Part shown: piece after piece, positions 31,137-48,162 of the stretch
Layout: each line of letters starts with the position of its first letter
Position numbering within the stretch: the stretch's first letter is position 1
Source: an uncultured Kiritimatiellota bacterium
GTDB lineage: Bacteria > Verrucomicrobiota > Kiritimatiellia > RFP12 > DVOR01
Direction of reading: 5' to 3'
DNA: 64,000 nucleotides
Assembly: GCA_944389545.1 (NCBI GenBank)
Contig: CALXMT010000003.1
Span: 1-64,000 of the forward strand
Made by a program: the position numbers and the translations under genes
The notes under the pieces: model-generated
Told to the model about the DNA's origin: nothing
The model's database searches: none
What the model saw: the letters and a program-made list of their open reading frames with translations, nothing else

Positions 31137-34100
31137 AGAAGACTCTCCTGCAACTCGCCGCCGCGCTTTTCTCCGCCGCCTTGATTATCTCCCTGTGGCC
31201 GCCCATTGGGCAGTCCGGCAACATCTGGTTCGCGTTGGTTCCGCTTCTGTTGCTGGTGCGCCATGTCTCTGTGCGCCGGGCCTTTTGGCTGGGCGGGTTG
31301 GTCGGCCTGGTCTCGTGGGTGGGGCAACTGTGGTGGATGCTCGCGCTGACCGACAACAATGGCCCCTGGTACCTTGTCCTTCCCGCACTGCTCGGGCTTA
31401 GCACCGTCTTGTCCGTTTTTGTCGCCGCCTTTGCGGGCTTGGCCGCGGCCCTTCGCGTGCGCCTCTCCGCAGAACCGGGCCTTGGGCGCATCGCCCTGGC
31501 CACGGTGTTGGAGCCCACGCTGTGGGCCGGATTGGAATGCTTGCGTTCCAACCTCTTTACCGGCTTTGCGTGGAATCCGCTGGGCCTGGCCCTGGCCACG
31601 CCGGCTTGGTTGCCCATTGCGCAGGTCGCCGCGTTGGGCGGCGCCGCCCTCGCCTCGGCCCTTGTCGTCTCCGTCAATGGCGCCATCGCCACGCTGTGCG
31701 AACGCATTTGGTTCTCCGTCACCCACACCGGCCCTGACGATTTCCGTGGACGGGCCTTGCTCTCGGCGGAGTCCATCCTGCCGTTGGCCTTCCTGTTGGT
31801 CGCCTTCCTGTGGGGCACGCACCGCATCGCCGCTTACAATGCGCTCATTACAGAGGCCCCTCGCGCTTCTGTCGTCGCCGAGTCCACCGAGGTCCCCAGC
31901 GTCTTCTCCGGCGGCCGTCTCTCCCCGCTTTGGCAACGTTCCACCTATGACCGCGCCCGGGATATGGCCTACCTGCGCCCGGATCTTTGGCTTTGGCCCG
32001 AGAGCGCCGTCTTCGAGTATGCCTTCCCTGACGCCGTCGGCGCCAAGGTCGCGCTTACCCGCCTTGCCGATGCGGCCGGGACGCCGCTCTTGCTCGGCGG
32101 GCTTCACCGCGCCCCCGAGGAGGGGTGGTACAACGCCGCCCTCCTCTTCACCGACCAGGGCCTCACTCAAGTCTACGGCAAGCGCCACCTCGTCCCCTTC
32201 GGCGAATACATCCCCTTCGACAAGACCTTTCCGTGGCTTCAGCGTTTCGCCCCCACCGGCCTCAGCAATGTCCCCGGTCGTGACGTCACCACGCTCACCT
32301 TGCCCTCCGGCCTGACCGTCGGTCCGCTCATCTGCTTCGAAGACTCCGTCGCCTCCGTCGCCCGCGAGTCCGTCAACGATGGCGCCCAAATCCTCCTCAA
32401 CATGAGCAACGACGCCTGGTACGCCGGCTCCGCCGAGCCCGCCCAACACGCCCACCAGGCCGCCCTGCGTTGCATCGAGACCGGCGTTCCCATGGCCCGC
32501 TCCTCCAACGGCGGCACCAACGTCGCTTACGATGCCGTCGGGCGGGTCATCGAGGATTTCGCTGCGCTTGCTCCGGATGCCGCCGTCCTCGCGCCGGTCT
32601 TTCTTCCCCTCACCGAGCGCCCCTTTGCCGGCCCGTACCTGCGCTTTGGCGAATTGACCTTCGGCGCCCCCTGCGCCACCTTCGTCCTCTGCCTGGCCGC
32701 TTGGCTTCTGTTCCGCAGGTTCCGCCGCCCGCTTGGCGGCCGTTCCGCGCTTCTGTTGTTCTTCTTGGTGTTGCCGCTGGTCTCTCTGCGCGCCCAGTCG
32801 ACCGGCGACAATCTGCTCCCTGCCGCCGGCATGGCCCTTGACGATGGCAACCTGAACATCGCCGAGCGTACCGCCCGCGACCTCCTCAACAAACTCGGCC
32901 TCACCCCTGAGGAACGCGCCCGCGCCACCGAAATCCTCATCCGCGCCGACCTCGCCAAGGGCGACTGGGATGCCGCCCTCAAGCGGATCGACGAATGCCC
33001 CGAGCTCCCCGCCGAGCGCCGCCTCGTCTTCACCCTCGCCGCCCACAATGGCCGCCGCGATTTCGCCGCCACCCAACGGCTCTTCGATGCCGCCCGCCCC
33101 TCCGCAGACACCGAGTGGGGCGTCGCCGCCCTCCGCCAGGCGCTGCGCGCCGACCTCGAACTGGGCCGCACGCTCCAGGCCTCCGCCCGCTTCTCCGCCG
33201 TCAATGCCGCCAAGGGTGCCGACTCCCGCACGCGTGCCGAAAACGCCCTCGCCTGGGTCGAACGCTTCCCCAATGCGCAGTCCCGCGCCGCCCTGCTCGC
33301 CGCCGCCGCAGAGGCCGACAAGGGCGATGTTTGGCTCGATTGCGCGCTCGCCCTGCCGGAGGCCTACGCCGGCGCCGAAGACCGTTCCGAAGCCCTGGCC
33401 CAACTCGACAAGTTGCTGGCCGCCCCGGATCTCAGCTCCTCCGTCGAGGCGCGTTTGGCCTTGGCCGCCTCCGCCCTCGCCGACCAGCCGGAGCAGGCCA
33501 TCGCCTATGCCCGCAAGGCCGCTGACGTCGCCCGTCGTCTTGACCTCCGCCGGCATGCCCTCTCCACCCTCGGCACCCTGCTCTGCGCCCAATCGGACGC
33601 CGCGTCCGTCAAGGAGGGCTTGGATGCCCTCGATCAAGCCGTGCGTCTGGACCCCTCCGCCGAGGATGCCCCCTCGCTCCTGCTCTATATCGCCGAGACC
33701 CTCGCCGCCCAGGGCCGCAACGAGGAGTCCCTCGCCGCCTACGACCGCTGGATCTCCGCCTACGATGTTCCCGACCTGCGCGTCCGGATCCGCCGTGGCC
33801 GGGGCCGCGCCCTCTTGGCCGTCGGGCGTCCCGACGAGGCGCTCGCCTCGCTCACCGAGGCCATTGAGCTCGCCGATACCGACACCCTCCGCCGTGAACT
33901 GCAGATCGAGGCCGTGGAGGCCGCGCTCGCCGCCAAGCGTTATCCCCGCGCCGAGACCCTCTGCCAAGAACTCCTCAAGGCCTCCCCCGATGCCGCCATC
34001 TCCCTGCGCCTGGCCCGCGCCTTGGAGGCCAATGGCGATTACGAGGCCGCCCGCCAGGCCTACGTCGTCACGCGCGACGCCCCCCAGGCCTCCGAGGACG

Positions 34101-35167
34101 ATGCCTACACCGCCGCCGTCCGGCTCGCCGCGCTCTTCTCCAAGGAAGGCCGCTACGATGCCGCCATCGCCGAATTCACCCGCTTCTTGCCTCGCGCTCG
34201 CAGACCTGCCCATCAGGCCGCCATTCGCCTGGGCCGTGGCCGGGCCTACCACGCCCTCGCCCTGTCCACCGGCGACCGCTTCCAACTGGAGCGTGCGCGA
34301 GACGACTTTGCCGCCCTGGAGGGCGCCGAGGACCCCGCCATCGCCTCCGAGGCCCGCTTCTTCCTCGTCCTGTGCCACTACGACCTCGGCGAAGACGACC
34401 AGGCGCGAACCCTCGCCCAGACCTATCTCACCGACTACCCCGACTCCCCGCGCGTCCCGGACATGATCCTCTGGCTCGCCAAGAGCGACTTCAACCGCGG
34501 GGAATATGAAGCCGCCGCCAAGGGCTTCCAGACCTTTGCCGACCGGTGGCCCAAAGATGCGCGCGTGCCGAATGCGCGTTTCCTCGCCGCCCGCGCCGCC
34601 TACCAGGCCGGCGACTACGCCCACGCCATCGAGTTGGTCGCCACCCTCGCCGAGACCGCGCCACAGGCCAAAATCCTCCCCGACGCCCGCTTCCTCCAAG
34701 CCGAGGCCCTCATCGAGCTCGCCCGCTTCGGCGAGGCCGCAGAGCTCCTCACCCGCCTCATCCGCCACTCCCCGGAAGCCCCCTGGGTCGGCGAGGCCCA
34801 TGGCCGTCTGGGCGACTGCCTCCGCATCACCGCCACCAACGACCCCGCCCGCTACGAACTCGCCTACGCGCACTATCGCGCCGCCCTCGACCGACTCGAC
34901 CCCGAGCAAGACCCCGATGCCGCCGCCATGTACGCCTACCAGATTGGCCGCGTCTATGAGAAGCAGGAACGCCTCGACCTCGCCGTCAAGCAATACTACA
35001 CCCTGCTCTACACCGCCGCCGCCCGCACCGCCGAAGCCTACACCGCCGAAGGCCGCCGCTGGCTCGACAAGGCCCGCACCCGTCTGGAATCCATCGAAAC
35101 CGCCCGTGGCCGCCGTGCCGAATATGGCCGCCTCCACGCCCGCCTCGCCTCCGCCGGCCTCGCCTGA
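31133..35167 (+). CDS. lnt: Apolipoprotein N-acyltransferase fused to a TPR domain
   Basis: Residues 1-560 form Lnt, which adds the third acyl chain to lipoproteins on the periplasmic face. Several N-terminal spans are followed by the nitrilase domain with Glu290 (WPES), Lys350 (YGKRHLVPFGEY) and Cys401 (LICFED). After the last Lnt span a second hydrophobic stretch (RSALLLFFLVLPLVSLRAQS) resembles a signal peptide, and residues about 590-1344 are an array of Ala-rich TPR-like helices (GDWDAALKRI, GEYEAAAKGFQTFADRWPKD). Ordinary Lnt is about 500-550 aa. No in-frame ATG marks a separate second gene. It overlaps the preceding stop by ATGA. Confidence 0.9.
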   Translation: MKKTLLQLAAALFSAALIISLWPPIGQSGNIWFALVPLLLLVRHVSVRRAFWLGGLVGLVSWVGQLWWMLALTDNNGPWYLVLPALLGLSTVLSVFVAAFAGLAAALRVRLSAEPGLGRIALATVLEPTLWAGLECLRSNLFTGFAWNPLGLALATPAWLPIAQVAALGGAALASALVVSVNGAIATLCERIWFSVTHTGPDDFRGRALLSAESILPLAFLLVAFLWGTHRIAAYNALITEAPRASVVAESTEVPSVFSGGRLSPLWQRSTYDRARDMAYLRPDLWLWPESAVFEYAFPDAVGAKVALTRLADAAGTPLLLGGLHRAPEEGWYNAALLFTDQGLTQVYGKRHLVPFGEYIPFDKTFPWLQRFAPTGLSNVPGRDVTTLTLPSGLTVGPLICFEDSVASVARESVNDGAQILLNMSNDAWYAGSAEPAQHAHQAALRCIETGVPMARSSNGGTNVAYDAVGRVIEDFAALAPDAAVLAPVFLPLTERPFAGPYLRFGELTFGAPCATFVLCLAAWLLFRRFRRPLGGRSALLLFFLVLPLVSLRAQSTGDNLLPAAGMALDDGNLNIAERTARDLLNKLGLTPEERARATEILIRADLAKGDWDAALKRIDECPELPAERRLVFTLAAHNGRRDFAATQRLFDAARPSADTEWGVAALRQALRADLELGRTLQASARFSAVNAAKGADSRTRAENALAWVERFPNAQSRAALLAAAAEADKGDVWLDCALALPEAYAGAEDRSEALAQLDKLLAAPDLSSSVEARLALAASALADQPEQAIAYARKAADVARRLDLRRHALSTLGTLLCAQSDAASVKEGLDALDQAVRLDPSAEDAPSLLLYIAETLAAQGRNEESLAAYDRWISAYDVPDLRVRIRRGRGRALLAVGRPDEALASLTEAIELADTDTLRRELQIEAVEAALAAKRYPRAETLCQELLKASPDAAISLRLARALEANGDYEAARQAYVVTRDAPQASEDDAYTAAVRLAALFSKEGRYDAAIAEFTRFLPRARRPAHQAAIRLGRGRAYHALALSTGDRFQLERARDDFAALEGAEDPAIASEARFFLVLCHYDLGEDDQARTLAQTYLTDYPDSPRVPDMILWLAKSDFNRGEYEAAAKGFQTFADRWPKDARVPNARFLAARAAYQAGDYAHAIELVATLAETAPQAKILPDARFLQAEALIELARFGEAAELLTRLIRHSPEAPWVGEAHGRLGDCLRITATNDPARYELAYAHYRAALDRLDPEQDPDAAAMYAYQIGRVYEKQERLDLAVKQYYTLLYTAAARTAEAYTAEGRRWLDKARTRLESIETARGRRAEYGRLHARLASAGLA

Positions 35168-35867: not shown

Positions 35868-36362
35868 GCGTTTCCCATCCCGGCAATGCTTCGTGTACCT
35901 TTGTGGTTCTTCGTGTTCTTTGTGAGAGCCGCGCAGCGTGGGGTCTGACCAAGCCTTCAAACCTCTAGACTTCTAAGCTTCCAATATTCAGTTGGCAAAG
36001 ATCTGGGATGTCTGGTGCTTGCGCCATCCACCCTTGTCAAAGACCTGTCATCCGTATTCCCTAAATCAACCTCAACTCCTTCACCCATCGCAGAATACGT
36101 CATTTCACAGGCTTGTCATTATGAGGAAGCTTGGGCGCTTGGCTTTCTTACAATGGTTTCGTCCGTCGCCCCACAGGGGCGTTCTGTAATCGTGGGAGGT
36201 TTGGCCTATCGGACCTGCACGCACAACACTGGCAATCCTTCTATCTTTCCTTTCCTTGCCTACTCGTGCTTTGTGTCCTTTGTGGACCTTTGTGCCTTTG
36301 TGGGTGCCGCGCAGCGTAACCAAGCCTCCAAACATCCAAACCTCTAAACTTCCAATTCATAT
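35868..36362. repeat. Intergenic mosaic between MITE copy 2 and leader promoter
   Basis: Includes CTTTGTGGTTCTTCGTG-type stretches (35888-35930 and 36270-36300), TCCAA arrays (35950-35985, 36320-36350), the second copy of the ~170-bp conserved element (35985-36125, minus strand), and an inverted CCTGCACG module near 36185-36230. No gene. Confidence 0.65.
35985..36125 (-). repeat. ~170-bp conserved element, copy 2
   Basis: The minus strand shares ordered blocks with 19205-19375: GTTGAGGTTGATTTAG, GATGACAGGTCTTTGACAAG and AGATCTTTGCCAACTGAAT. Sequence between the blocks differs. Confidence 0.6.
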
Positions 36363-36391
36363 TTGACATTCTGGTGGGAATGGGGTATCTT
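36363..36391 (+). promoter_or_regulatory. Sigma-70 promoter (TTGACA-N17-TATCTT)
   Basis: TTGACA at 36363-36368, 17 nt, TATCTT at 36386-36391. Predicted transcription start near 36398. It is the best -35/-10 pair in the window and stands in front of the structured RNA and the cohesin/dockerin gene cluster. Confidence 0.75.
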
Positions 36392-36397
36392 ATAGAC

Positions 36398-36628
36398 ACC
36401 GTTTGAGTTGCGGTGGAGCCGCGAGGCCCCCCACCACGCCTCAGACACATGAAAGCATGCGTCACGCATACTTTCGTCCGATGGAAATTAGCACCTTTCA
36501 TGAAGGGACGAACGTATTGCGGAGGCGCGTCTGGGTTATTCCCCAGGCGTGTTTCTTCGTATCGTCTCTTCCTTCAGGGTAGTGCTAAGCCTCCATCGGA
36601 GACACGGTCGGCGGAGCACGCCTTTTTT
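36398..36628 (+). ncRNA. Structured RNA or leader, ~230 nt, family unknown
   Basis: From the predicted start to a run of six T (36623-36628). By eye, ACCGT at the 5' end pairs with ACGGT (36604-36608), GGTGGAG (near 36412) with CTCCATC (near 36591), GAAAG-C-ATGCG-TCA-CGCAT-A-CTTTC forms a hairpin (about 36453-36477), and CGCGTCTGGG pairs with CCCAGGCGTG (about 36521-36546). GGCG-GAGCA-CGCC before the T-run could terminate. Closing stem, bubble and size recall 6S RNA, but I could not confirm any family; tmRNA, SRP RNA and RNase P motifs are absent. It may be an attenuator-type leader for the gene at 36687. Confidence 0.5.
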
Positions 36629-36686
36629 GTGCCCGCCTCTCCGGCGAGGACCTCTTCGTCCACGCCATAACGTTAGGAGATGGACG

Positions 36687-37565
36687 ATGAGTGTGCAACC
36701 GATGAGTAAACAACTTGAAGAGGTGTTGACTCACAATCCTTGGGCGGGCAAGGCCAAGTCGTGGTACAAATATGTGCCAGGTGAGAAGTATTACTTTGCC
36801 GAAGACAAGGCGGCAATTGATCAGTTCAATGTAAACTCAAATGGCAAGACCGTAAAGGTTCATTTTGAACTCCCTCCGCAACCCTTCATTGGTGACCCTG
36901 ACGCGCCGATTTGGATTCTTCACCTTTGCCCGGGATACAGTGATATAGACCTCTACGATATGGTCTCTATCGATCACGAACTTGATGGTACGCCCATTGT
37001 GAAGAACTGTACGAAAGAGGCCTTCGAGGAGCGTCGCAAGTCCCTCTTCCGCCAGTTGGACTTTTCGGAACCTCATCCGTTCTATGTCTTAAAAGAAGAG
37101 TTCCGGACCATCAAACAACAAAACAGAATCCATTTAAATGGCACCTATGGATGGTGGTACAACTATCTTCTGGAGGGGCCAGACTCCTTCTTGACAGAGC
37201 ACGATTTGGACAAGTGTTTTGTATTGGAAGCTTTTCCCTATCACTGTGATACGACCGACAAAGAAAAGCATTGTAATCCCTCTGCCTCTTTGATTCGGAA
37301 GATGTGTCATCACGATTTTTGGTGTAAGTTGGTGGAATACGCGTTTGCACAAGACAAAGCCATCATTGCTCGACGTGGAGTTGCATCGTTGGTAGAGAAT
37401 TGTCTCAAGAACGTGAAAACAGACAAACTATGTGTGTTCACCTCCACGCAGAACATTTACCTAACGAAAGGTAATGTCGCGAAGCGGTTTAAACATCGCC
37501 ATAGACCTACCCAAGCGGAGCGCGATTTCGCTTTTTGTCGTATTACTGAAAAGTTGTCTAAGTAA
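36687..37565 (+). CDS. Hypothetical protein with weak uracil-DNA-glycosylase-superfamily resemblance
   Basis: A 292-aa soluble protein, more AT-rich than most genes here. Residues 74-88 (PIWILHLCPGYSDID) resemble the first motif of UDG-like folds. A later strand carries FPYH (183-186), then IARRG (227-231), STQN (253-256) and KGNV (261-264), an order I recall from widespread uncharacterised proteins ending in a (S/N)PQN..SPGN motif. Catalytic function is not established. The ATG at 36687 has TAGGAGATGG upstream. It is the first coding gene after the structured leader and 10 bp ahead of the LRR gene. Confidence 0.6.
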   Translation: MSVQPMSKQLEEVLTHNPWAGKAKSWYKYVPGEKYYFAEDKAAIDQFNVNSNGKTVKVHFELPPQPFIGDPDAPIWILHLCPGYSDIDLYDMVSIDHELDGTPIVKNCTKEAFEERRKSLFRQLDFSEPHPFYVLKEEFRTIKQQNRIHLNGTYGWWYNYLLEGPDSFLTEHDLDKCFVLEAFPYHCDTTDKEKHCNPSASLIRKMCHHDFWCKLVEYAFAQDKAIIARRGVASLVENCLKNVKTDKLCVFTSTQNIYLTKGNVAKRFKHRHRPTQAERDFAFCRITEKLSK

Positions 37566-37575
37566 GAGGTCCCCT

Positions 37576-38796
37576 ATGAAACGGTTCTTCACACTTTTTG
37601 TGTTGTTGTGCGCCCCCATTCTTTCCGCCGATACATGGCAAGACCCTGAAACCGGAATCACTTGGCGGTATGGCATCCGTTCTGATGGCTCTGTCTCTAT
37701 TTGGGGAGTTGTTGGGGAGCTTCCTGCACATCTGGTAATTCCTTCAGAAGTCAATGGATATCAAGTGATAGCAATCGGAGAATTCGCCTTTCTCAAAGAA
37801 ACATCTCTGCAATCTGTTGTTATTCCAGAGGGGGTGACAACACTTGAAACTTATGCGTTTGCGGGGTGTTCTTCGTTGAAATCTGTTGTTATTCCAGAGG
37901 GGGTAACATACTTTTTCTCTGGAGTGTTTGAGGAGTGCACTTCATTAGAGTCGTTGGTAATTCCTGCCAGTATGAAAGGTTTTGGATTAGAGGAGTTTAA
38001 ATATTGTTCATCATTAAAGTTAATAGTATTTAAAGGAGATGTTCCCGGTAATGTCGAAGCAAGTTCTGCAAGTAGGTATCCGATTTCTTACCCGTTTGTA
38101 TATGCGAATAATTGGCAAAAGTCTTTTCCAGACAAGCCATGTGAGATTTTTTCGGATGGAATTCTTCCGGCGCAGGTGAATGTGTATACACACACTGAAC
38201 TGACGACGCCAAAGACGATGAAGGTGACGTACACGATAAAGGGGAATCTGCCGACAGTGAAGGTTCGTGCGGTGGCATGGAAAGACGGCGTGCGTAGTTT
38301 TGCCAATATCATTCCCGTGCGGACGGGAGAAGGTATCCCAAGTGGAGAGCGTGTGACCACAAATGAGGAACATTCTTTCGTGTGGGACGTGGCGAGCGAT
38401 TGGGCCTCCGACTTGGACAAGGTGACGGTGGAGATTCTCGTTCAAGAGGGGGCACTTCTGCCGCAGGATTTTGTCACCATTCCCGCAACAGAGACGCGCA
38501 AGGCGATGATTATCACGCGGAATGTCTTGCTAGAATCGTGGCTTTTTGATGCGTTGGTATGGTGCTATGCGGAGGGGGATTCGCAGTTGCAAGTAAAAAA
38601 TGGTCGAGCCTATGTGAACGGTACTCAAGTCGCGAATGCGGCCTCAGTTTCTCCTGATGCGCTGAATTATCTTTATGGCAAAATGGGTTATAAGGTGCTT
38701 GCCGGGGAGGACTTGAAATATGCGGAGGCGGCGACGCGGTTGGACTTCTCGGACAATGGGCTTAACCAAGTCTCTGTGAAGATTGAGGAGGAGTGA
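37576..38796 (+). CDS. Secreted leucine-rich-repeat (BspA-like) surface protein
   Basis: A 406-aa exported protein. The signal peptide is at residues 1-18 (FFTLFVLLCAPILSA). Residues about 50-165 hold four or five BspA-type repeats (TSLQSVVIPEGVTTLETYAFAGCSSLKSVVIPEGVTYF). The C-terminal 200 residues (KVTYTIKGNLPTVKVRAVAW... to ...LNQVSVKIEEE) form a separate non-repeat domain. The LRR half is AT-rich and the C-terminal half less so, which hints at a chimeric origin. The ATG at 37576 follows AAGAGG. It is 2 bp from the scaffold gene, so co-translation is likely. No sortase or lipid anchor is seen. Confidence 0.8.
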   Translation: MKRFFTLFVLLCAPILSADTWQDPETGITWRYGIRSDGSVSIWGVVGELPAHLVIPSEVNGYQVIAIGEFAFLKETSLQSVVIPEGVTTLETYAFAGCSSLKSVVIPEGVTYFFSGVFEECTSLESLVIPASMKGFGLEEFKYCSSLKLIVFKGDVPGNVEASSASRYPISYPFVYANNWQKSFPDKPCEIFSDGILPAQVNVYTHTELTTPKTMKVTYTIKGNLPTVKVRAVAWKDGVRSFANIIPVRTGEGIPSGERVTTNEEHSFVWDVASDWASDLDKVTVEILVQEGALLPQDFVTIPATETRKAMIITRNVLLESWLFDALVWCYAEGDSQLQVKNGRAYVNGTQVANAASVSPDALNYLYGKMGYKVLAGEDLKYAEAATRLDFSDNGLNQVSVKIEEE

Positions 38797-38798
38797 GG

Positions 38799-41700
38799 AT
38801 GGGATGGGCGCGAGGGTTGGCGCCGGTCGTGGCGTTGGCCTTGGGCGGGTTGGCCGCCCAAGGCTGGGGGCAAAATGCCGCCCGCGTGACGGTCAAGCAG
38901 GTGGACAGTTTCGGAACGGAATTGGCCGCTGAACAGTATGTCTCTACGGACGCGGTCTTCACGTCGGTGGCGGCGCCGGAGCGGAGCGGCAAGCGCTTCA
39001 CTCATTGGACGGTGGAACCGACGCAACCAGGCTTCGTGAACCGCGACGCATGGGGACGGGCGTTGGACGCAGTGCAACTGACGCCGAAGGACGCGGTCGT
39101 CACATTGACGGCTGTCTATGTGGACGTGGCAGAGGACACGGACGGAGATGCCATCCCCGATGCGGACGAACGCTATTGGTATGGCACGGCGAGCGCCTAT
39201 GACACGAAAGGTTCGCTCCAATGGGATGGCGCGAGCGACACGGACGGCGACGGCTACACCTTCGCCGAGGAGTTGCAGTGCACGCTAAACCCACTCTTTC
39301 CGAACGAACTCAAGCTCGGCGGCGTGGCCTACGGTGACAGCGCAACGGTGCTCTACAACCCGAACGGTTATGTGCCCTACACGGTGCGCTCCGACCCCGA
39401 GGGCGAACTCTTTGCGACCTACTCCGCCTCTGTGCGTCCGGGGACGGTTATTACGACCAAAGAGTCCTTCTCACCGGACGACTCGACCTTCGCCTACTGG
39501 ACGGTGAACGGCGTGCGCCAGGCCGACGCCTGGGGCGTGGCGACGAACGTGGCAATCTTCACGGTGGGCAACGAGCCCATTGAGGTGGTGGCCCACTGTG
39601 TGGCGGACGAACAGTCGCGTCAGTCGCTCTATTGGTATGGCGGCGATGTGGGGCCGGATTCCGATACCGACGGTGACGGTTACACCCTCTCTGAAGAGTT
39701 GCAATATGGACTAAGCCCCATCTTTCCGAATGAACTTAAGCTCGGTGGCGTGGTCTACGGCGACAGCGAGGTGGTGCTTTACAATCCGAATGAGTATCCC
39801 GAGGTGACCATCCGCTCTGAGCCCGAGGGCGTCTTCGCCACGGAGAGCCTGGTGCTGCGTCCCGGGCAGGAACACACCACGGACACCTATACGCCGGACG
39901 ACCGCTTCGCCCAGTGGACGCGCAACGGGGAACGTCAGGCCGATGCGTGGGGCCGCGCACTCGACGCCGTGACCATCGTCGGTAACCCGGGCGTGGGCAA
40001 GGTGGAGCTCGTGGCCGACTTTGTGGACGACGAGCACACACGTCTCTCACGCTATTGGTACGGCGTGGACAATCAACCTAAGGACTCCGACACCGACGGC
40101 GACGGTTACACCTTCTCCGAGGAGCTGCAGGCTGGCATGAATCCGCTCTTTCCGAACAAACTCGTCCTCGGCGGCGTGGCTACCGGCGACGGCCCGACGC
40201 TGGAGAGCAACCTGCAACCCTTCGACATGGGCGGCCTCGCCTTGGTGGAGGGCGCCTTGGAGGAACTCTTCGCGACCCTCGACGGCGCGACGGGGGAACT
40301 GACGGGCGGCCGCGACTTCGGCGGCCCCGCCGCCGTGGCGGTCGTGGACTTCGACCAAAACGAGGCCTTCGACGTCCTCGTCTTCGCCCAAGGCGTCCTC
40401 TGGACGCTTCGCAACGTCGGCGTCGCGGGGAGCCCGGAATGGGCGATTGCCCCCGCCGCGGAGGTCGCCGAACAGCCCGGCCTCGCCGCGTTGGAGTGCG
40501 CCCTCGCCGCCTTGGCACGGCCCGTGATGGCCGGCGGCGCGGCCGAGGCCGGCCCGGCGGTCTGGTTCTGCGACGACGGCGGGCCCGTGCGGCGCCTCGA
40601 CCTCGCGACGGGCGCCGTCGCCGAGACGGGCCTCGCGGGCTTCCCCGTGTGGGACGCCGCCGACGGCCCCGGCGTCTTCGCCGACAACGCCCTTGCCCTG
40701 GCCGCCGGGCAAAGCCTCCCCCTCGATGCGGCGGTGGAGGCCCCCTGCGCCGCGGCCTTGTCCGATGCGACGGGTGACGGTGCGGCCGATTTGCTCGTGG
40801 CGGATACGCAGGGGCGCATCTCCCTCTATGCCCGGACGGCGGATGGTTTCGCCCTTGAGCACCGCGTCTGGGGCGGTTCTTTCATTGGTTTCGCCGAGGG
40901 GCTGACCTTAGCCCCTGTGGACTGGGAGTCCGACGGTGACCTCGATATGCTCTGCGGTACGGCCACGGGCAAACTCCTCCTGCTTAGTGACCCGAACGTG
41001 GGCAGACCGAGTAACCTCCGTGCCACGGCGGGGTATGACAACGTCCTGCTGACGTGGGACCCGAACGGCCAGTCGCGCGTCTATGGTTACGGCGTCTACC
41101 GTGCGCAGGGGGCCGACTTCGCCCGTATTGCCGAGGCGTTGCTCCCCACCCACCGCGACACGCCGCCGAGCCTTGCCACGTGGGCCTACCGTGTGACCGC
41201 GCTCAGCCGCCTCTGGACCGCCGGCAACTCCGTGCCAGAGACCTTCGAGAGCCTCCCCAGTGAGGTGGTGAGCGTCGACCTCGGCGGCATCACCCTCTCG
41301 ATGCCCGAGACGATTGCCTCCTACGACGATGCGGAGATTGCCCTGCCCATTATGGTGGACAACACCAAGGGGCTTGGTGCTTTCACCCTCACCGTGACCT
41401 ACGACCCCATGATTGTCGATCCGTTGGGCTACGAACCTACCGCCCTTACCGAGGGCCTTACGGTCACCTCCACGCCCGCCGATGGCACTTGGACGCTCTC
41501 GGCCACCGGAGCACTCACGGCAGGTTCTGGCCCCTTCTTCCGTTTGCGCTTCCACGTCAAGGCCGGGGCCTTCGGCGAGACCGTCTTCCGATTGACCGAG
41601 GCCGATTTCACGGCGACCGACGGTAAGCCCGTCGCTACCAACGCGCTCCCCATCGAGACCACGCTCACGGTGCAGGCGCGGCCCCTCCCCGCCACCGTCT

Positions 41701-43292
41701 CCCTGCGGATGGAGGACGCCCAGGCCAAGACTGGCGAAACCATCCGCGTGCCCGTGTCCGTCGAGTCCGCCAACTCCATCGACTGGGCTACGCTCACTCT
41801 TACCCCGGCCTTCGATGCCGGCAAGCTCCGTCTGGTCTCTCGTACCGAGGCTACCGAGACCGAGCCGACCCTTACCCTCACCTTCGAGGTGTTGGAGCAA
41901 CACGGCGACAATCTCTTCACTACTGTCACCGTCTCCGGTACGGCTACAAGCGCGAACGGTCTCCCCGCCACCGTCCTTCCCGCCACCGCCACCATCTCGA
42001 TCACGGACAGCAACCCGCCCGTACCCGCAATCGTTACGCTGACAACGACGGATGTTCCCGCGAACGTGGGCGAAACAATCACGGTCACGGTCGCGGCCCG
42101 CAGTGAAGGGGATTTGCTTTGGGAAACACTGTCATTGACTCCCGACTTCGACAAGTCTTGGTTGGAGTTGCTTGGTCAGACGCCCGCCACGGCATCCATG
42201 CCGGCGACCTTCTCCTTCAAGGTCTTGGAGCGCTTCGGCGTCAATCTGGCCACGGCCATCACTTTCTCGGGAACGGCCATGAGTGCCAACGGACTCGCGG
42301 CCACCGTCGGAAGTGTCACCTGCCGCGTGCTCATTGCCGACAACCCGCAGGAACCGGCAGTCGTCTCGTTGAGTCTGCCCAACCAGACCGTGGACACGCT
42401 GTCGCGCGTGTCGTTGACTGTCGAGGCGACTGCGGTGGGCGAGGTCGAGTGGGACACACTCGCACTCCATGCGCAGTGGGATGCCTCCAAACTCGACCTC
42501 GTCTCGCAGGAGGGGCGTACCTTCGTCTTCGACGTCAAGGACGTTCACGAGGACCTTTCCACGACGATGACTATCACCGGTACGGCCACGAGCACGAATG
42601 GACTTCCCGCGATTGTCCAGCCGGCCACTTGCACGCTCACGTTTATTGACACGAATCCGCCGGTGCCGGCGGTGGTGACGTTGGCGGCGGAGGGTGGAAG
42701 CGCGATGACGGAGAGCGAGGTGACGCTTGCGGTGCGTGTGAGCACGGTGGGTGAACTGGACTGGGGGACGTTGGCGTTGACGGCGACCGTGGAGGCCGGC
42801 GGCTTGGAGCTGCGGAGTCAGACGGCGGCGACGGTCGAGAACCCGACGGCAACCTTTACCTTCTGGGTGCCGGAGCAGCACGGGGACGACCTCTTTGCGC
42901 GGGTGACCTTCACGGGCTCGGCAACGAGCGCGAACGGTCTGCCGGCGCAGGTGGCGCCGACGACGGTGACGTTGGCCCTCACGGACAGCAATCCGCCGAA
43001 GGATCCGACGGAGGTGCCGCCGTGGTCGAGCGGGGATGTGGATGGCGATGGCAAATTGACGTGGGACGACTACGCGACGGCCCGTGCGGCTATTCTGAAG
43101 TATCACCGTCCTACCATTCGGCCGCCGAGTCACTCCTCCGACCCGAACGCGACGGACAACAAGGTGCACCGTTCCATCTGCCAGGCGCTCGGGCGCGGGG
43201 AGAATGAGACGTTGTCCATCGCGGACATCACGGCGTTTCAGCGGTATCTCGAGGGGATTTTGGGCGAGATGCCCAAGGAGGCGACGCGATGA
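38799..43292 (+). CDS. Giant secreted scaffold with cohesin-like repeats and C-terminal dockerin
   Basis: 1497 aa, exported (signal peptide about 1-25, ending near GWGQ). Domains in order: three repeats of about 140 residues, each with a DTDGDGYTF calcium-type loop (near 147, 288 and 430) and an FPNEL/NKL..GGV block; an FG-GAP-like propeller region (about 490-725; DATGDGAADLLVAD, DWESDGDLDML); a fibronectin-III-like domain (about 737-810); a cohesin-like domain (about 829-950; VTYDPMIVDPLGYE); four tandem related domains of about 100 residues (964-1397), each ending ATSANGLPA...DSNPP; and a dockerin type I-like end (1408-1494; GDVDGDGKLTWDDY, second half LSIADITAFQRYL). The ATG at 38799 has GGAGGAG; a GTG at 38793 is possible. 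Confidence 0.75.
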   Translation: MGWARGLAPVVALALGGLAAQGWGQNAARVTVKQVDSFGTELAAEQYVSTDAVFTSVAAPERSGKRFTHWTVEPTQPGFVNRDAWGRALDAVQLTPKDAVVTLTAVYVDVAEDTDGDAIPDADERYWYGTASAYDTKGSLQWDGASDTDGDGYTFAEELQCTLNPLFPNELKLGGVAYGDSATVLYNPNGYVPYTVRSDPEGELFATYSASVRPGTVITTKESFSPDDSTFAYWTVNGVRQADAWGVATNVAIFTVGNEPIEVVAHCVADEQSRQSLYWYGGDVGPDSDTDGDGYTLSEELQYGLSPIFPNELKLGGVVYGDSEVVLYNPNEYPEVTIRSEPEGVFATESLVLRPGQEHTTDTYTPDDRFAQWTRNGERQADAWGRALDAVTIVGNPGVGKVELVADFVDDEHTRLSRYWYGVDNQPKDSDTDGDGYTFSEELQAGMNPLFPNKLVLGGVATGDGPTLESNLQPFDMGGLALVEGALEELFATLDGATGELTGGRDFGGPAAVAVVDFDQNEAFDVLVFAQGVLWTLRNVGVAGSPEWAIAPAAEVAEQPGLAALECALAALARPVMAGGAAEAGPAVWFCDDGGPVRRLDLATGAVAETGLAGFPVWDAADGPGVFADNALALAAGQSLPLDAAVEAPCAAALSDATGDGAADLLVADTQGRISLYARTADGFALEHRVWGGSFIGFAEGLTLAPVDWESDGDLDMLCGTATGKLLLLSDPNVGRPSNLRATAGYDNVLLTWDPNGQSRVYGYGVYRAQGADFARIAEALLPTHRDTPPSLATWAYRVTALSRLWTAGNSVPETFESLPSEVVSVDLGGITLSMPETIASYDDAEIALPIMVDNTKGLGAFTLTVTYDPMIVDPLGYEPTALTEGLTVTSTPADGTWTLSATGALTAGSGPFFRLRFHVKAGAFGETVFRLTEADFTATDGKPVATNALPIETTLTVQARPLPATVSLRMEDAQAKTGETIRVPVSVESANSIDWATLTLTPAFDAGKLRLVSRTEATETEPTLTLTFEVLEQHGDNLFTTVTVSGTATSANGLPATVLPATATISITDSNPPVPAIVTLTTTDVPANVGETITVTVAARSEGDLLWETLSLTPDFDKSWLELLGQTPATASMPATFSFKVLERFGVNLATAITFSGTAMSANGLAATVGSVTCRVLIADNPQEPAVVSLSLPNQTVDTLSRVSLTVEATAVGEVEWDTLALHAQWDASKLDLVSQEGRTFVFDVKDVHEDLSTTMTITGTATSTNGLPAIVQPATCTLTFIDTNPPVPAVVTLAAEGGSAMTESEVTLAVRVSTVGELDWGTLALTATVEAGGLELRSQTAATVENPTATFTFWVPEQHGDDLFARVTFTGSATSANGLPAQVAPTTVTLALTDSNPPKDPTEVPPWSSGDVDGDGKLTWDDYATARAAILKYHRPTIRPPSHSSDPNATDNKVHRSICQALGRGENETLSIADITAFQRYLEGILGEMPKEATR

Positions 43293-44599
43293 GGGCGTTC
43301 TTGGCGTGCGTGGCGGCGTTGGCCGCCGGAATCGCGGCGGCACGGACGGTGTCGTTGGGCGCCGTGGTGTGCAACCCGGGGGCCCGGCTGACGGTGCCGA
43401 TTGAGGTGGACGACGTGGCCGGGGTGGCCTCGGTCTACGTGCGGGTAACGTATGACCCGCTGGTGTTGGCGTTGGTGGAGGTGCGTCCCGGAACGTTGCA
43501 AGAGGCGTTCGGGACGGACTTTGTGACGGCGTCTGACGCGGGGTCGGCGTGCGTGTTGGCCTTCGGTCGCGAGAACGCGGCCTCGGGTTCGGGAAGCGTG
43601 GCGGAGTTGGTCTTTGAGGCGCGGCCCGGGTGCGAGGGGATGTATTCGGACGTGGCGTTGGCGGAGGCTCGGTTGGAAGAGCGGACGCAGACCGCGGACC
43701 TAACGGTGTCGGTGCCCTTGGAGCCGACCAACGGGATGGTGCGGGCCTTCGCGCCGGACGGCACGTGCGAGACACGTCAAGGTGCGGCCACGGTGACGGT
43801 GGCCGCGGAGACGACCCTGCGTTGCCTGACCTTGGCAGCGGGGGACGCCTTGGAGGCGAGCGCAAGCGCGGAGCCGCGCCCCATCACCGTGACGGAGGCG
43901 CTCGCCGCCGAAGGGACCTTGCGGGTCTTGCCGCCGGAGGGCGGTTGGGCGACGGCGCGTTATGAGGTTTTGCGTTGCCCGGCCTCGACGCCGACGCTGA
44001 CGTTGGAGGCGGCGGAACCGCCGGAGGCGTGGACGGTGACGGCGCTCACCGAGGGCGGGACGACGACCTACGTGTTGGAAACGACCGTGGAGACGGAAAT
44101 CCCTGTCCTGACCGAGGCAGAGTTATCGCCGGCGGACGCGAACCTGCTTCGCGAGCTCCTGGCGGAACGTTTGGACGGCGTGACGGCCATCCGCGCGGAA
44201 GGTTCGCGCGAGGCGATCTTGGCCGGCTTGGATTTGGGTATTGTGCCGGTCTGCGCGGTGGAGAATGGCACGTTGACGGCGACCTTCGAACTGCCTGAGC
44301 TGCGCATCACCGCCTTCGACCCCGCGACGGGAACGGTGCAGGTGCGGGTCATCCCCGCGGAGGGCGCAACCATCACCCAAGAGGTCCGCACGGGCGTCTT
44401 GCAAGTGTGGGCGACGGAGGATCTTGGTGTGGAGATGAAAGCCGTGCCGGACGCGGCCTTCAGTCTGCAGAACTATGTCGGGCAGGGCTTGGCCGGTGTG
44501 ACGTTGCCGGAGGCCTTCCGTCTGAGTTTGGGACGAAACCTTTTCATCAAAGTGGTCGCCGATCATCCGGCGGCCGCGGAACAACCAACCGGAGACTAA
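43289..44599 (+). CDS. Secreted protein with N-terminal cohesin-like domain
   Basis: 436 aa. The signal peptide is at residues 1-19 (AFLACVAALAAGIAAA). Residues about 20-150 have the cohesin pattern: VVCNPGARLTVPIEVDDVAG, VRVTYDPLVLALVEV, and GSVAELVFEARPGCEGMYSDVAL. The remaining 280 residues are beta-rich and Thr/Glu/Ala-rich without a recognised domain; EIPVLTEAELSPADANLLRELLAERL forms one helical segment. It overlaps the scaffold gene by ATGA. It could receive the dockerin of the preceding protein, which is an inference from domain types. There is no anchor motif; the outer-membrane barrel gene follows after 6 bp. Confidence 0.7.
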   Translation: MRAFLACVAALAAGIAAARTVSLGAVVCNPGARLTVPIEVDDVAGVASVYVRVTYDPLVLALVEVRPGTLQEAFGTDFVTASDAGSACVLAFGRENAASGSGSVAELVFEARPGCEGMYSDVALAEARLEERTQTADLTVSVPLEPTNGMVRAFAPDGTCETRQGAATVTVAAETTLRCLTLAAGDALEASASAEPRPITVTEALAAEGTLRVLPPEGGWATARYEVLRCPASTPTLTLEAAEPPEAWTVTALTEGGTTTYVLETTVETEIPVLTEAELSPADANLLRELLAERLDGVTAIRAEGSREAILAGLDLGIVPVCAVENGTLTATFELPELRITAFDPATGTVQVRVIPAEGATITQEVRTGVLQVWATEDLGVEMKAVPDAAFSLQNYVGQGLAGVTLPEAFRLSLGRNLFIKVVADHPAAAEQPTGD

Positions 44600-44605
44600 G
44601 ACACC

Positions 44606-45316
44606 ATGAAAAATCTTATCGCACTCTTTTGCGCGGCCGGCTTGGCCGCTGTGGCCGCCGCGGCCGAGGCTCCTGCCTTGGAGGCCGGCGGGACGGATTG
44701 GGCCAGCCGCCTGCGCGTCTCGGCCGGAGGTTTCGGGCGCTTTGGCGCGGAGGCGAAGCTGAAAGGCCTGGGCAGCGACAACGGCGACCTGTGGGGTGCG
44801 GGTTTGGACGTACAGTTCAATCTCATTCCCGCAGAACGCTTCAACCTGTGGGTCGGGCTCGGCGGCACCTACATCCCCGAGCAGGACTTCGCGGATTTCG
44901 CCTATTCGGAAGGTGACGCTTCTTACTCCTATACGGAGGCTTACAAGATGCGTATTCGTTCCTATGGGATGCGTCTGATGGCCGTGCCGGAGTGGAAGGT
45001 GTGCGACGCCTTCGCGCTGGGTCTGCGCCTCGGGGTCTCCCTGGAGCACTACAAGGGCGAGGTGCGCGACAATTGGCGCTACTCGGACGATTACGGAACC
45101 GATTCCGGCACCGATATCTTCTCTGACTCGGATAACTTGGTGCAGGGCATCGTGGGTCTGCAGGCCACGTGGAACATTACCGACCATTTCGGCCTCTTCG
45201 CGTATGTGGATGGGCGTTTCGGCGGCGATGTGGACCTGAAGGTCGAGGGCGAGAAGATCGGCTCCTTCGACGGCACCTCCTGCGAGGCCGGCCTGGGTCT
45301 GCACTGGGTCTTTTGA
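44606..45316 (+). CDS. Outer-membrane beta-barrel protein, ~8-10 strands
   Basis: 236 aa. The signal peptide is at residues 1-20. The rest alternates polar and hydrophobic residues with aromatic girdles (SRLRVSAGGFGRFGAEAKL, FNLWVGLGGTYIP, GMRLMAVPEWKV) and ends in ...GLGLHWVF, the terminal Phe expected for outer-membrane insertion. It ends the operon and may tether or assist the cohesin/dockerin proteins, though a general porin-like or OmpW-like role is possible. A terminator follows 70 bp later. Confidence 0.75.
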   Translation: MKNLIALFCAAGLAAVAAAAEAPALEAGGTDWASRLRVSAGGFGRFGAEAKLKGLGSDNGDLWGAGLDVQFNLIPAERFNLWVGLGGTYIPEQDFADFAYSEGDASYSYTEAYKMRIRSYGMRLMAVPEWKVCDAFALGLRLGVSLEHYKGEVRDNWRYSDDYGTDSGTDIFSDSDNLVQGIVGLQATWNITDHFGLFAYVDGRFGGDVDLKVEGEKIGSFDGTSCEAGLGLHWVF

Positions 45317-45389
45317 CACGCACGCGGCGGCCTTGTTTAGGGCCGCCGCCAGAACCTGCACTGACATCAAGTTCGGTATCATGATTACA

Positions 45390-45414
45390 GGGTCCCTCGC
45401 GGGGCCCTTTTGTT
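45390..45414 (+). terminator. Rho-independent terminator of the cohesin/dockerin operon
   Basis: GGGTCCC-TCGC-GGGGCCC followed by TTTTGTTT. A stronger hairpin GCGGCGGCC/GGCCGCCGC lies just upstream (45325-45350) but lacks a T-run. Confidence 0.75.
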
Positions 45415-45527
45415 TGGATTCAATCACCTTCTGCAAAGAACCGAGCGCTCTGGCGGGGCGCTCGCGTCTTCACGGTAAACCTTTTTTGGAGGCCGTGCCG
45501 TAATTTCTTTACGGAACGAGTTCCGTG

Positions 45528-45536
45528 TGTTATCAT
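45528..45536 (+). promoter_or_regulatory. Extended -10 promoter (TGTTATCAT) of the AAA ATPase gene
   Basis: TGTTATCAT is 33 nt before the ATG at 45570. An inverted repeat CCGTAATTTCTTTACGG lies about 20 nt upstream (45498-45514) and could bind a regulator. Confidence 0.5.
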
Positions 45537-45569
45537 AAAGGCAGTTTAGTATTAACAACGGTGATGATC

Positions 45570-46685
45570 ATGCTCAAATCTTTTGAGGTCGAGAATTTCC
45601 GCGGCTTCCAAAACCCGATTAGGCTTTGCCTTGTCGCGAGGAACTATGATTATAACCCGGCCGTGGTCAAGGATGGCTTGGTCAAGAACGCGATTTTGTA
45701 CGGCCCGAATGGCATCGGCAAGAGTTCGTTGGGATTGGCGCTCTTTGACGCGGCGCGCCATCTCACGGATACGACGCCTTTCCCGGCGGAGCGTTTGGAG
45801 CCTTATTGCAACCTTGACAATCCGGCGGATAGGCCGGCCTGTTTCACGTATGAGCTTCTGTGCGGAGGGACAACGATTCGCTATCGTTATGAGAAGCGTG
45901 CGCCGGATGCGTTGGTGCGCGAGACGCTGTGCTTTGATGGTCGTAAAGTTGTCGACTACTGTTATGCAGAGGCGCGGCAGGAAGCGCGGTTTGTGGACAA
46001 ATCCGTCTTCGGCGACATCAAGACGGACTTGCCTGACAACCGTCTTTCCATCTTGAAGTATTTGCACCGCAACTTGCCGACCGGGACCGTTCCGGCGCTT
46101 GACGCCTTTTTCCGTTTCTTTGAGGGCATGTTGTGGTATCGCTCCCTGTCGGAGGGAAATTCCTACGCGGGTTTCACGACGGGTTCGCGGATGCTTGAGG
46201 ATGTGATCTTCGAGGCCAATGCGTTGCCGGGCTTCGTGGCCTTCTTGGAGGAAAATGGCTTGCATTACGATCTCACGTTTCGGGAGGTCGATGGCAAGCC
46301 TCGCTTGATTGCCCGGTTCAAGGATGGCCGAGAGGCCTTCTTCGGCTCTGTTGCGTCCACCGGCACGAAGGCGTTGATGCTCTTTTATTCGTGGAAGATT
46401 TCCGCCTTCTCGCGGCTGTCCTTCCTGTTCATTGATGAGTTTGACGCTTTCTTGCATTATCAGTCGGCGGCGGCAATTGTCCGGTTGCTCAACGAGCATA
46501 CCGACTTCCAGACTGTGCTGACCACGCACAACACCTATCTGATGCAAAATGCGTTTACTCGTCCGGACGCCTGTTTCTTGATGGGTGAACAACGCGTGGC
46601 GTGTTTGGCGGATGCGACGCAGAAGGAGATTCGCGCGGCGCACAACCTTGAGAATCTCTATCTCAATGGAGCCTTCCGTGTCTGA
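45570..46685 (+). CDS. AAA family ATPase (AbiL/OLD-like, COG1106-type)
   Basis: A 371-aa SMC-like ATPase. It opens MLKSFEVENFRGF, typical of this group, with Walker A GPNGIGKSS (residues 45-52), an STGTKALMLFYSW signature-like block, Walker B LSFLFIDEFDAFLH, and TTHNTYLM as the H-loop. No nuclease (TOPRIM) domain is attached. Such lone ATPases often act in abortive infection or with a toxin partner, but no partner gene is adjacent, so the role is open. In-frame ATG at 45564 and GTG at 45561 are alternative starts. It has its own promoter and terminator. Confidence 0.85.
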   Translation: MLKSFEVENFRGFQNPIRLCLVARNYDYNPAVVKDGLVKNAILYGPNGIGKSSLGLALFDAARHLTDTTPFPAERLEPYCNLDNPADRPACFTYELLCGGTTIRYRYEKRAPDALVRETLCFDGRKVVDYCYAEARQEARFVDKSVFGDIKTDLPDNRLSILKYLHRNLPTGTVPALDAFFRFFEGMLWYRSLSEGNSYAGFTTGSRMLEDVIFEANALPGFVAFLEENGLHYDLTFREVDGKPRLIARFKDGREAFFGSVASTGTKALMLFYSWKISAFSRLSFLFIDEFDAFLHYQSAAAIVRLLNEHTDFQTVLTTHNTYLMQNAFTRPDACFLMGEQRVACLADATQKEIRAAHNLENLYLNGAFRV

Positions 46686-47287: not shown

Positions 47288-47372
47288 CAGAAAGAACGCC
47301 GCCGGAGAACACGAGGGTGTATCACCAGCATGAGCAATCATGTGGTAGTCGTGCCGGGGGTTCTTTCTTTTT
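47288..47372 (+). ncRNA. Candidate small RNA / convergent terminator hairpin
   Basis: About 85 nt between the TATAAT at 47277 and six T at 47367-47372. AGAAAGAAC and CCGG near the 5' end pair with CCGG and GTTCTTTCT before the T-run, enclosing a 49-nt loop. It overlaps the last 35 nt of the DUF3800 coding region in antisense and, read on the other strand, also resembles that gene's terminator (T-rich TGCTTTTATT). Confidence 0.4.
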
Positions 47373-48135
47373 TGCATAGACAGGTTGCATCCATTTCTAC
47401 CTTATTGGGTGTCATGGCCTTGTCAAAATATTTAACCCCATAGTTTAATATATCCTTTCCATGTTTATAAAGGTGTGATCTCAAACGATACTCAAAGCAA
47501 GGTGTACGAAAGCCCCATGTGTTGACTTCATGCGACCAAAACATGGAAGTTGCACATACATCCGCCAGTTGGAGCATGTCCCATGAAGATGCAGGTTTCG
47601 CGGAGATTCGCTTAAACACGCCTTGGGCAAGTCGAGTTCCTGGATAAGTACCCGTAATCAATTTCTCACTGATATACTGAATAAGCTCTTCATCGCGAGC
47701 AGTTCCCCGTGCGGAAAGGACAATGTCTCCGACTCGTTGCGTGTCTCGTAAAAACCAAGACACCCGTTCCAACAACATCCGACAGATGTAGTTGTATGCA
47801 ACACTTGCCGTTGCGCGCATCGTCAAATTCAGCTTCTTTGTGTCAACGAGTACCGCAATATAGGTAAATGTTCCGTCTGCCAACACATCTACAGCAAAAG
47901 CGCGTTGATTGTAATCTCGCAACTTTCGCATATGGATTTCTCGTACATTAAGACGTTCACGAACGATCTCTATTTTATGGCGTAATTCCGTCTCTTCCGT
48001 CTTGTCCACCACTACAGCAGCAAGAACAAACCATTGGGTTCCTCGTTGATAGCCGAGATCCCCTGCCTCATCTATATAAACAGTTGAAGGAGTGATTTGT
48101 TTCTCTTCTACAAAAGTTGTCAAACCGAGTTCCAT
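47338..48135 (-). CDS. DUF3800 domain protein
   Basis: 265 aa, AT-rich relative to the neighbours. The DUF3800 signature VYIDEAGDLGYQRG is near the N-terminus (residues 19-32), with two acidic residues that in this family are thought to form an RNase-H-like active site. FVLAAVVVD follows, and D-M-L-Q-L-A-D-V lies near residue 205 (QLADV is a common late motif). Function is unknown; the family is often found near mobile elements and defence genes. The ATG at 48135 (GAGGTGATT upstream) is preferred over 48153. TATAAT lies about 25 nt upstream on the minus strand. Confidence 0.82.
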   Translation of the reverse strand: MELGLTTFVEEKQITPSTVYIDEAGDLGYQRGTQWFVLAAVVVDKTEETELRHKIEIVRERLNVREIHMRKLRDYNQRAFAVDVLADGTFTYIAVLVDTKKLNLTMRATASVAYNYICRMLLERVSWFLRDTQRVGDIVLSARGTARDEELIQYISEKLITGTYPGTRLAQGVFKRISAKPASSWDMLQLADVCATSMFWSHEVNTWGFRTPCFEYRLRSHLYKHGKDILNYGVKYFDKAMTPNKVEMDATCLCKKERTPGTTTT

Positions 48136-48162
48136 AATCACCTCTACTTTCACTGCTTTAAT

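What the first reader, a model, noticed from the sequence alone, without database searches (positions are those of the whole stretch)
36363..45414. Candidate cohesin-dockerin surface system in one operon behind an RNA leader
Five genes sit within a few bases of each other or overlap: a UDG-like protein, an LRR protein, a 1497-aa scaffold with cohesin-like repeats and a C-terminal dockerin-like domain (GDVDGDGKLTWDDY), a protein with an N-terminal cohesin-like domain, and an outer-membrane barrel. Known cohesin-dockerin pairs build cellulosomes, but no glycosidase or carbohydrate-binding module is seen here. A scaffold with both domain types encoded next to a cohesin protein and a barrel suggests a self-assembling surface layer or adhesin rather than a cellulosome. 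The domain calls are by eye.
Basis: partly seen in the sequence, partly recalled or inferred. Interest (0 to 1): 0.8.

Follow-up and report, generated by a model that had tools for sequence, protein, structure and literature searches.

The report
Cohesin-dockerin operon behind switch-like leader RNA
A bacterial operon encodes one protein ending in a molecular plug (dockerin) and a neighbour starting with the matching socket (cohesin), with no sugar-degrading enzymes, and it is transcribed behind a folded leader RNA, absent from the Rfam library, that also precedes DNA-restriction and surface-protein genes in about a third of the related genomes searched.

Summary
The observation mostly holds. 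Pfam confirms cohesin domains in the 1497-aa scaffold and its downstream neighbour; the top PDB fold matches of the neighbour's domain are all cohesins. The scaffold's C-terminus is a dockerin by orthology: 12 orthologues match a dockerin profile, but the window's own subclade has lost the second calcium loop. The "cohesin-like repeats" are one full cohesin plus four shortened copies. The UDG label could not be supported.

In 17 genomes, cohesins occur only in these two genes and the dockerin, where detected, ends the scaffold (one genome has an extra small copy). Two species carry an in-frame fusion of scaffold N-arm and neighbour C-tail that drops every cohesin and dockerin. This suggests a closed, non-cellulosomal connector between two secreted proteins, anatomically like Archaeoglobus ORF2375/2376. 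Binding is not shown.

The leader (36396-36633) is the more novel part: a covarying RNA without Rfam 15 match, found in 106 of 346 genomes of the class, up to ten copies each, before about 50 gene families enriched in restriction-modification. Two incompatible pairings, antiterminator-like and terminator-like, are both supported by covariation, suggesting a transcription attenuator. Its signal is unknown.

The parts
36363..36391 (+). sigma-70-like promoter of the leader: TTGACA, 17 bases, TATCTT
   Evidence: read from sequence; a similar -35/-10 lies before many other copies of the RNA
36396..36633 (+). structured leader RNA; at least 8 copies in this genome
   Evidence: covariance model R1, 216.9 bits; folding z-score -8.3, 0 of 200 shuffles as stable; no Rfam 15 match
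36474..36517 (+). 5' side of the long-range stem (TTCGTCCGATGG..TTAGCAC..GAAGGGACGAA)
   Evidence: pairs with 36568-36605; 95.5-99.7% paired in 55 rows outside the training set against 58-65% when shuffled
36525..36535 (+). strand 1: antiterminator-like partner of strand 2
   Evidence: 1:2 hairpin 98.3% paired in 55 outside rows
36542..36552 (+). strand 2: pairs either with strand 1 or with strand 3
36568..36605 (+). 3' side of the long-range stem; in the other fold it closes on itself (TCTCTTC/GGAGACA)
36616..36628 (+). strand 3 plus T-run: GCACGCC TTTTTT, terminator-like
   Evidence: 2:3 stem 94.7% paired in 55 outside rows, shuffled maximum 90.2%; this stem was not in the model used to align
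   Evidence: no family match; homologues in two other genomes also sit directly behind the RNA
37576..38796 (+). secreted BspA-type LRR protein with a conserved C-terminal tail of about 190 aa
   Evidence: Pfam LRR_5 7.2e-20; in other families the same tail follows NHL-like repeats, by eye
38799..43292 (+). scaffold (SCAF), 1497 aa, signal peptide by eye
38880..40232 (+). SCAF N-arm: WYG..DTDGDGYT modules with TSP3-like calcium loops
   Evidence: Pfam TSP3_bac, 3 stretches, E=1.9e-5, 24.9 bits against a cut-off of 25
40764..40952 (+). SCAF FG-GAP-like repeat
   Evidence: Pfam FG-GAP_3 8.7e-6, 26.7 bits against a cut-off of 26.9
41322..41642 (+). SCAF cohesin domain
   Evidence: Pfam Cohesin over cut-off
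41676..42971 (+). four shortened cohesin-like repeats (about 105 aa each); none in the nearest relative L045
42996..43277 (+). SCAF dockerin: first calcium loop canonical (DVDGDGKLTWDD), second degenerate with an insertion
   Evidence: orthologue profile A8, all 11 members match PF00404; hhalign 93.5%, E=2.3e-7
43289..44599 (+). neighbour protein (COHB), 436 aa, signal peptide by eye
43346..43657 (+). COHB cohesin domain
   Evidence: Pfam 6.4e-11; Foldseek top 50 all cohesins
44075..44596 (+). COHB C-tail, fused directly to the SCAF N-arm in two species
44606..45316 (+). putative outer-membrane barrel, 236 aa
   Evidence: no Pfam match; homologue follows COHB in L045, L094 and L102

Best explanation
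The operon makes a small, closed, non-cellulosomal cohesin-dockerin complex at the cell surface. LRR protein, scaffold, neighbour and barrel are exported. The scaffold's C-terminal dockerin docks on the N-terminal cohesin of the neighbour encoded right after it, so that the scaffold's calcium-binding N-arm is tied to the neighbour's C-tail; the scaffold's own cohesin may bind a second dockerin and extend the complex. Transcription is gated by the 5' leader RNA: strand 2 pairs either with upstream strand 1 (antiterminator-like, inside a long-range stem, read on) or with downstream strand 3 before a T-run (terminator-like, stop). The same leader precedes restriction-modification and surface-protein genes elsewhere, so the operon probably belongs to a regulon of accessory, possibly phage-facing genes. 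Shown here: the domains, their near-exclusive co-occurrence, the fusions, the RNA family, covariation for both folds, gene context. Inferred: protein binding, surface location, termination, regulation, the signal.
For: Cohesin domains: Pfam, fold. Dockerin by orthology. In 17 scaffold-bearing genomes cohesins lie in the scaffold and its neighbour, and detected dockerins end the scaffold, with one extra small copy in G570; own genome: one dockerin, two cohesin genes. The neighbour starts within about 30 bases of, or overlaps, the scaffold stop in nearly all loci read (inspected, not formally counted). In-frame fusion of scaffold arm and neighbour tail in two species. Precedent with reported binding: A. 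fulgidus Doc at the C-terminus of ORF2375, Coh at the N-terminus of ORF2376 (PMC9705933). RNA: 24 of 44 pairs with double changes, 0 of 500 shuffles, slid controls 32-55% against 97.4%; alternative fold 94.9%, 16 pairs with double changes; 55 rows outside training support both; median 35 nt from RNA end to start codon, about 50 gene families; 16 of 30 EcoRI-type methylase loci, picked by gene family, carry it within 300 nt upstream.
Against: No binding, no complex prediction and no expression data. The window's own dockerin has lost canonical calcium ligands in its second loop, so binding may be weakened, altered or lost in this subclade. The scaffold has its own cohesin, so the partner is ambiguous. 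The fusions could be plain deletions. Only some genus operons have the leader (window, L045, L050; not L046, L048). Some RNA copies have poor T-runs (TTAATT), so termination may not be the output everywhere. Alignment A5 was fitted to the long-range fold, which favours that fold in the counts.
Confidence: 0.62

Rival explanations
1. Self-assembling fibre or layer: scaffold dockerin binds scaffold cohesin of the next molecule, giving head-to-tail chains, with COHB as cap or anchor.
For: Scaffold carries both a full cohesin and a dockerin; shortened cohesin-like repeats vary from none to four between species.
Against: A dedicated second cohesin protein is encoded next door in nearly all loci read; fusions keep scaffold arm plus neighbour tail; the A. 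fulgidus pair binds between the two genes (PMC9705933).
Confidence: 0.2
2. In this subclade the dockerin has lost cohesin binding and the cohesins serve as ordinary beta-sandwich spacers.
For: Second calcium loop degenerate with an insertion in window, L045, L046 and L048; Pfam dockerin only E=0.32.
Against: The changed tail is retained and conserved in four species; COHB cohesin still scores 6e-11; gene order unchanged.
Confidence: 0.2
3. The leader RNA is not a switch but a mobile or repeated promoter-RNA cassette, or a separate small RNA ended by the terminator, with no control of the gene behind it.
For: Many copies per genome before unrelated genes; truncated copies exist (L109, L110, L119).
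Against: Strong compensatory change in far diverged copies, constant position about 35 nt before start codons, same strand, and two exclusive pairings with a T-run.
Confidence: 0.25
4. Degenerate cellulosome scaffold.
For: Scaffold with cohesin and dockerin modules.
Against: No other dockerin protein in the genome or in nearly all relatives, so no enzymes to recruit; no glycosidase or carbohydrate-binding family in the operon.
Confidence: 0.02

Closest known systems
Archaeoglobus fulgidus ORF2375/ORF2376 cohesin-dockerin pair
   Same: Dockerin at the C-terminus of one gene, cohesin at the N-terminus of the gene numbered next; non-cellulosomal; specific binding reported (PMC9705933; structure 2xdh, matched).
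   Different: Here in bacteria, within an operon with an LRR protein and a putative barrel, a much longer multi-module scaffold with its own cohesin and repeats, and an RNA leader.
ANME archaeal scaffoldin-like proteins (one dockerin plus several cohesins)
   Same: Dockerin and cohesins in one protein outside cellulose degradation (PMC9012536).
   Different: ANME genomes carry many dockerin and cohesin proteins; here the set is one dockerin and two cohesin genes.
Cellulosome scaffoldins (CipA and relatives)
   Same: Cohesin fold and a C-terminal dockerin on the scaffold.
   Different: No enzymes with dockerins, no carbohydrate-binding module matched, only one full cohesin.
Transcription attenuators and riboswitches with terminator/antiterminator platforms
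   Same: Three strands with mutually exclusive 1:2 and 2:3 stems, T-run, position in the 5' leader.
   Different: No Rfam 15 match; about 50 unrelated downstream gene families enriched in restriction-modification and LRR proteins; a long-range stem whose sequence varies from copy to copy while staying complementary.

Membership tests
Cohesin (PF00963) | Pfam model over curated cut-off | tested here: met
   Scaffold 47.4 bits, COHB 43.1 bits, cut-off 24.1
Cohesin (PF00963) | cohesin beta-sandwich fold | tested here: met
   COHB model: 50 best PDB matches are cohesins, best E 8e-7; mean pLDDT only 69
Type I dockerin (PF00404) | Pfam model over cut-off in the window protein | tested here: not met
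   12.9 bits against 22.9
Type I dockerin (PF00404) | Pfam match of the same tail in orthologues | tested here: met
   11 of 11 orthologue tails match, best 2.4e-9; the one itemised scores 33 bits against 22.9
Type I dockerin (PF00404) | two calcium loops | tested here: not met
   window, L045, L046, L048 keep one canonical loop; most other orthologues have two
Cellulosome | several dockerin-bearing enzymes | tested here: not met
   no other dockerin in the genome; none in 11 of 12 relatives with a match, one small extra copy in G570
Non-cellulosomal cohesin-dockerin pair (A. fulgidus kind) | dockerin and cohesin on adjacent genes | tested here: met
Non-cellulosomal cohesin-dockerin pair (A. 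fulgidus kind) | specific binding | not testable with these tools
   no assay; no complex prediction offered
Attenuator leader RNA | mutually exclusive covarying 1:2 and 2:3 stems | tested here: met
Attenuator leader RNA | conditional termination | not testable with these tools
   needs in vitro transcription or RNA-seq
Any Rfam 15 family | covariance model match | tested here: not met
   no match at E up to 1 for the window leader, none at E up to 0.5 for 12 loci holding diverged copies

The most novel reading that the evidence does not exclude
The leader is a new, class-wide regulatory RNA that switches restriction-modification and surface-adhesin genes together, a common RNA gate for phage-facing accessory genes, with a copy-specific complementary long-range stem that may keep copies from cross-pairing; the cohesin-dockerin surface complex is one of its clients.
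Probability: 0.4. Interest if true: 0.88.

Novelty: new variant of a known kind. Interest (0 to 1): 0.72.

Why it matters
Non-cellulosomal cohesins and dockerins are known but their purpose is largely open; a system with essentially one dockerin and two cohesin genes, plus natural fusions that bypass the link, makes it directly testable. The leader RNA would be a regulator of restriction-modification genes acting through RNA structure, present in nearly a third of the genomes searched in a poorly studied class and, as far as the Rfam and literature searches here reach, undescribed.

Tried and rejected
Cellulosome: rejected (no dockerin enzymes). UDG label: no support in Pfam, NCBIfam, PADLOC or PDB. 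AlphaFold2 of the dockerin tail alone: too poor to use. A genome-contig scan with the scaffold core returned only weak, unrelated-looking loci and did not name the organism. Leader in phages, plasmids and viral contigs: none by DNA similarity or pattern. Literature on the leader, on restriction-modification leader RNAs and on cohesins/dockerins in this group: nothing specific found. A first alignment with unoriented copies was wrong and was redone.
Full report
OBSERVATION. The five genes are present, on one strand, with gaps of 10, 2, -4 and 6 bases. Start codons with plausible Shine-Dalgarno sites: 36687, 37576, 38799, 43289, 44606. The last four proteins begin with signal peptides by eye; the first does not. 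Pfam finds LRR_5 in the second, Cohesin in the third (E=2.9e-12) and the fourth (E=6.4e-11), and borderline TSP3-like and FG-GAP-like repeats in the third. The first protein and the barrel match no family, so the label UDG is not supported and 'barrel' rests on sequence character.

COHESINS. The COHB domain (43346-43657) was modelled by AlphaFold2 from six window sequences (pLDDT about 80 in the core, mean 69); the 50 best PDB matches are cohesins, including the Archaeoglobus fulgidus one, 2xdh. The scaffold has one full cohesin (41322-41642) followed by four shortened relatives of about 105 aa; only the first passes Pfam's cut-off alone. The nearest relative, L045, has none of the four.

DOCKERIN. 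In the window the Pfam dockerin model reaches only 12.9 bits. Orthologues settle it: L047, L051, L054 and most of L093-L102 end in tails such as GDVDGDGDVDKDDLKLLARLKNGNGQHPTADQIKAGDFNGNGKLDNADYQALRALL, and 11 of 11 tested match PF00404. Profile comparison aligns the window tail to them (93.5%, E=2.3e-7). The subclade of the window, L045, L046 and L048 keeps the first loop; the second is degenerate with an insertion.

A CLOSED SET. The scaffold core model finds 17 clear orthologues in 346 genomes of the class, in five families besides the window's own. In these 17 genomes all strong cohesin matches lie in scaffold and neighbour, and the dockerin profile finds the scaffold tail in 12; G570 has one extra short copy beside its cohesin gene; the genus members with the degenerate tail, and G528, fall below the threshold. 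Own genome: two cohesin genes, one dockerin. The neighbour follows the scaffold directly in the loci read, except L100 (G570), where no downstream gene was found in the stretch examined. The upstream gene keeps a common tail but has LRRs in the genus and NHL-like repeats, by eye, in some other families. The barrel gene follows COHB in L045, L094 and L102.

FUSIONS. In G011 (L050:8280-10217) and G013 (L049:1039-2484) one intact frame joins scaffold residues up to 475 to COHB residues 263-436 and lacks every cohesin and the dockerin. The simplest functional reading is that the non-covalent link was replaced by a covalent one; plain deletion cannot be excluded.

PRECEDENT. In A. fulgidus the dockerin lies in ORF2375 (432-506) and the cohesin in ORF2376 (29-162); the pair binds strongly and specifically (PMC9705933). 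Dockerins and cohesins outside cellulose degradation, and binding of archaeal ones, are also noted in PMC9012536.

LEADER RNA. A DNA search with 36355-36690 found copies in 12 of 17 genomes of the family, before unrelated genes. An alignment of 21 copies (A4) gives a consensus with 26 of 51 pairs compensated on both sides. Counted on a named structure: 97.4% of cells paired, 24 of 44 pairs with double changes, 0 of 500 shuffles as high, 32-55% when slid. A second, incompatible structure gives 94.9% and 16 pairs with double changes, slid 37-60%. The window copy folds with z=-8.3. No Rfam 15 match.

DISTRIBUTION AND CONTEXT. The model finds it in 82 of 145 genomes of the order (E up to 1e-3) and 106 of 346 of the class (E up to 1e-5), with up to 10 copies per genome and 8 in this one. 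It was not found by DNA similarity or pattern in phages, plasmids or viral contigs, searches that only reach close copies. Of 83 matches read, 80 are followed on the same strand by an open frame of at least 100 aa, median 35 nt from RNA end to start codon, about 50 gene families (some starts are uncertain). Pfam on 69 of these proteins: EcoRI_methylase 7, ResIII 7, LRR_5 7, Mrr_cat_2 4, N6_Mtase 3, ISP_coupler 3, N6_N4_Mtase 2, HsdM_N 2 and others, with overlaps between families; PADLOC agrees. Reciprocal test: 30 loci chosen by the methylase family; 16 have the RNA within 300 nt upstream on the same strand and one at 1 kb, against 4 copies in 387 kb of other loci, of which three were fetched because of this operon (Fisher p about 1e-18 as computed with 17 of 30 and with background genes approximated at one per kb, not counted).

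SWITCH. In 55 rows outside the training set the long-range helices pair at 95.5-99.7% (shuffled 58-65%), the 1:2 hairpin at 98.3% (shuffled maximum 86.7%) and the 2:3 stem before the T-run at 94.7% (shuffled maximum 90.2%); the last was not part of the model. An outer extension of the 2:3 stem is not supported in these rows (70.5%, same as shuffled). The hypervariable long-range stem stays complementary across copies (TAGCAC/GTGCTA, TACCAC/GTGGTA, CGACCA/TGGTCG and others). This is the anatomy of a transcription attenuator; the trigger is unknown, and some copies have weak T-runs.

LIMITS. No binding, termination or expression was measured. The leader occurs at this operon in the window, L045 and L050 but not in L046 or L048.

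Noticed in passing
47291-47371 (+) and 47338-48153 (-): Rfam DUF3800-VII RNA (57.4 bits) overlapping the 3' end of a DUF3800 gene on the other strand.
   Followed up: no
45525-46685 (+): AAA ATPase directly downstream of the operon; PADLOC candidate defence family PDC-M12A, E=2e-101.
   Followed up: partly
31133-35167 (+): Apolipoprotein N-acyltransferase (TIGR00546, 5.8e-74) in one open frame with about 800 aa of TPR/YbgF-like repeats; real fusion or assembly error not tested.
   Followed up: no
L119:751-1437 (-): In G009 a homologue of the barrel gene sits alone behind its own, 5'-truncated copy of the leader RNA.
   Followed up: partly
L058:5367-5601 (-): A second leader copy 33 kb from the first in the same contig, 83% identical in DNA, before a protein with no family match that has relatives behind other copies.
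   Followed up: partly
L024, L025, L027-L029 and similar (G042, G093, G241 and others): Another genus of the phylum has a cohesin-bearing frame of about 1315 aa in many of the genomes drawn, one match per genome.
   Followed up: no
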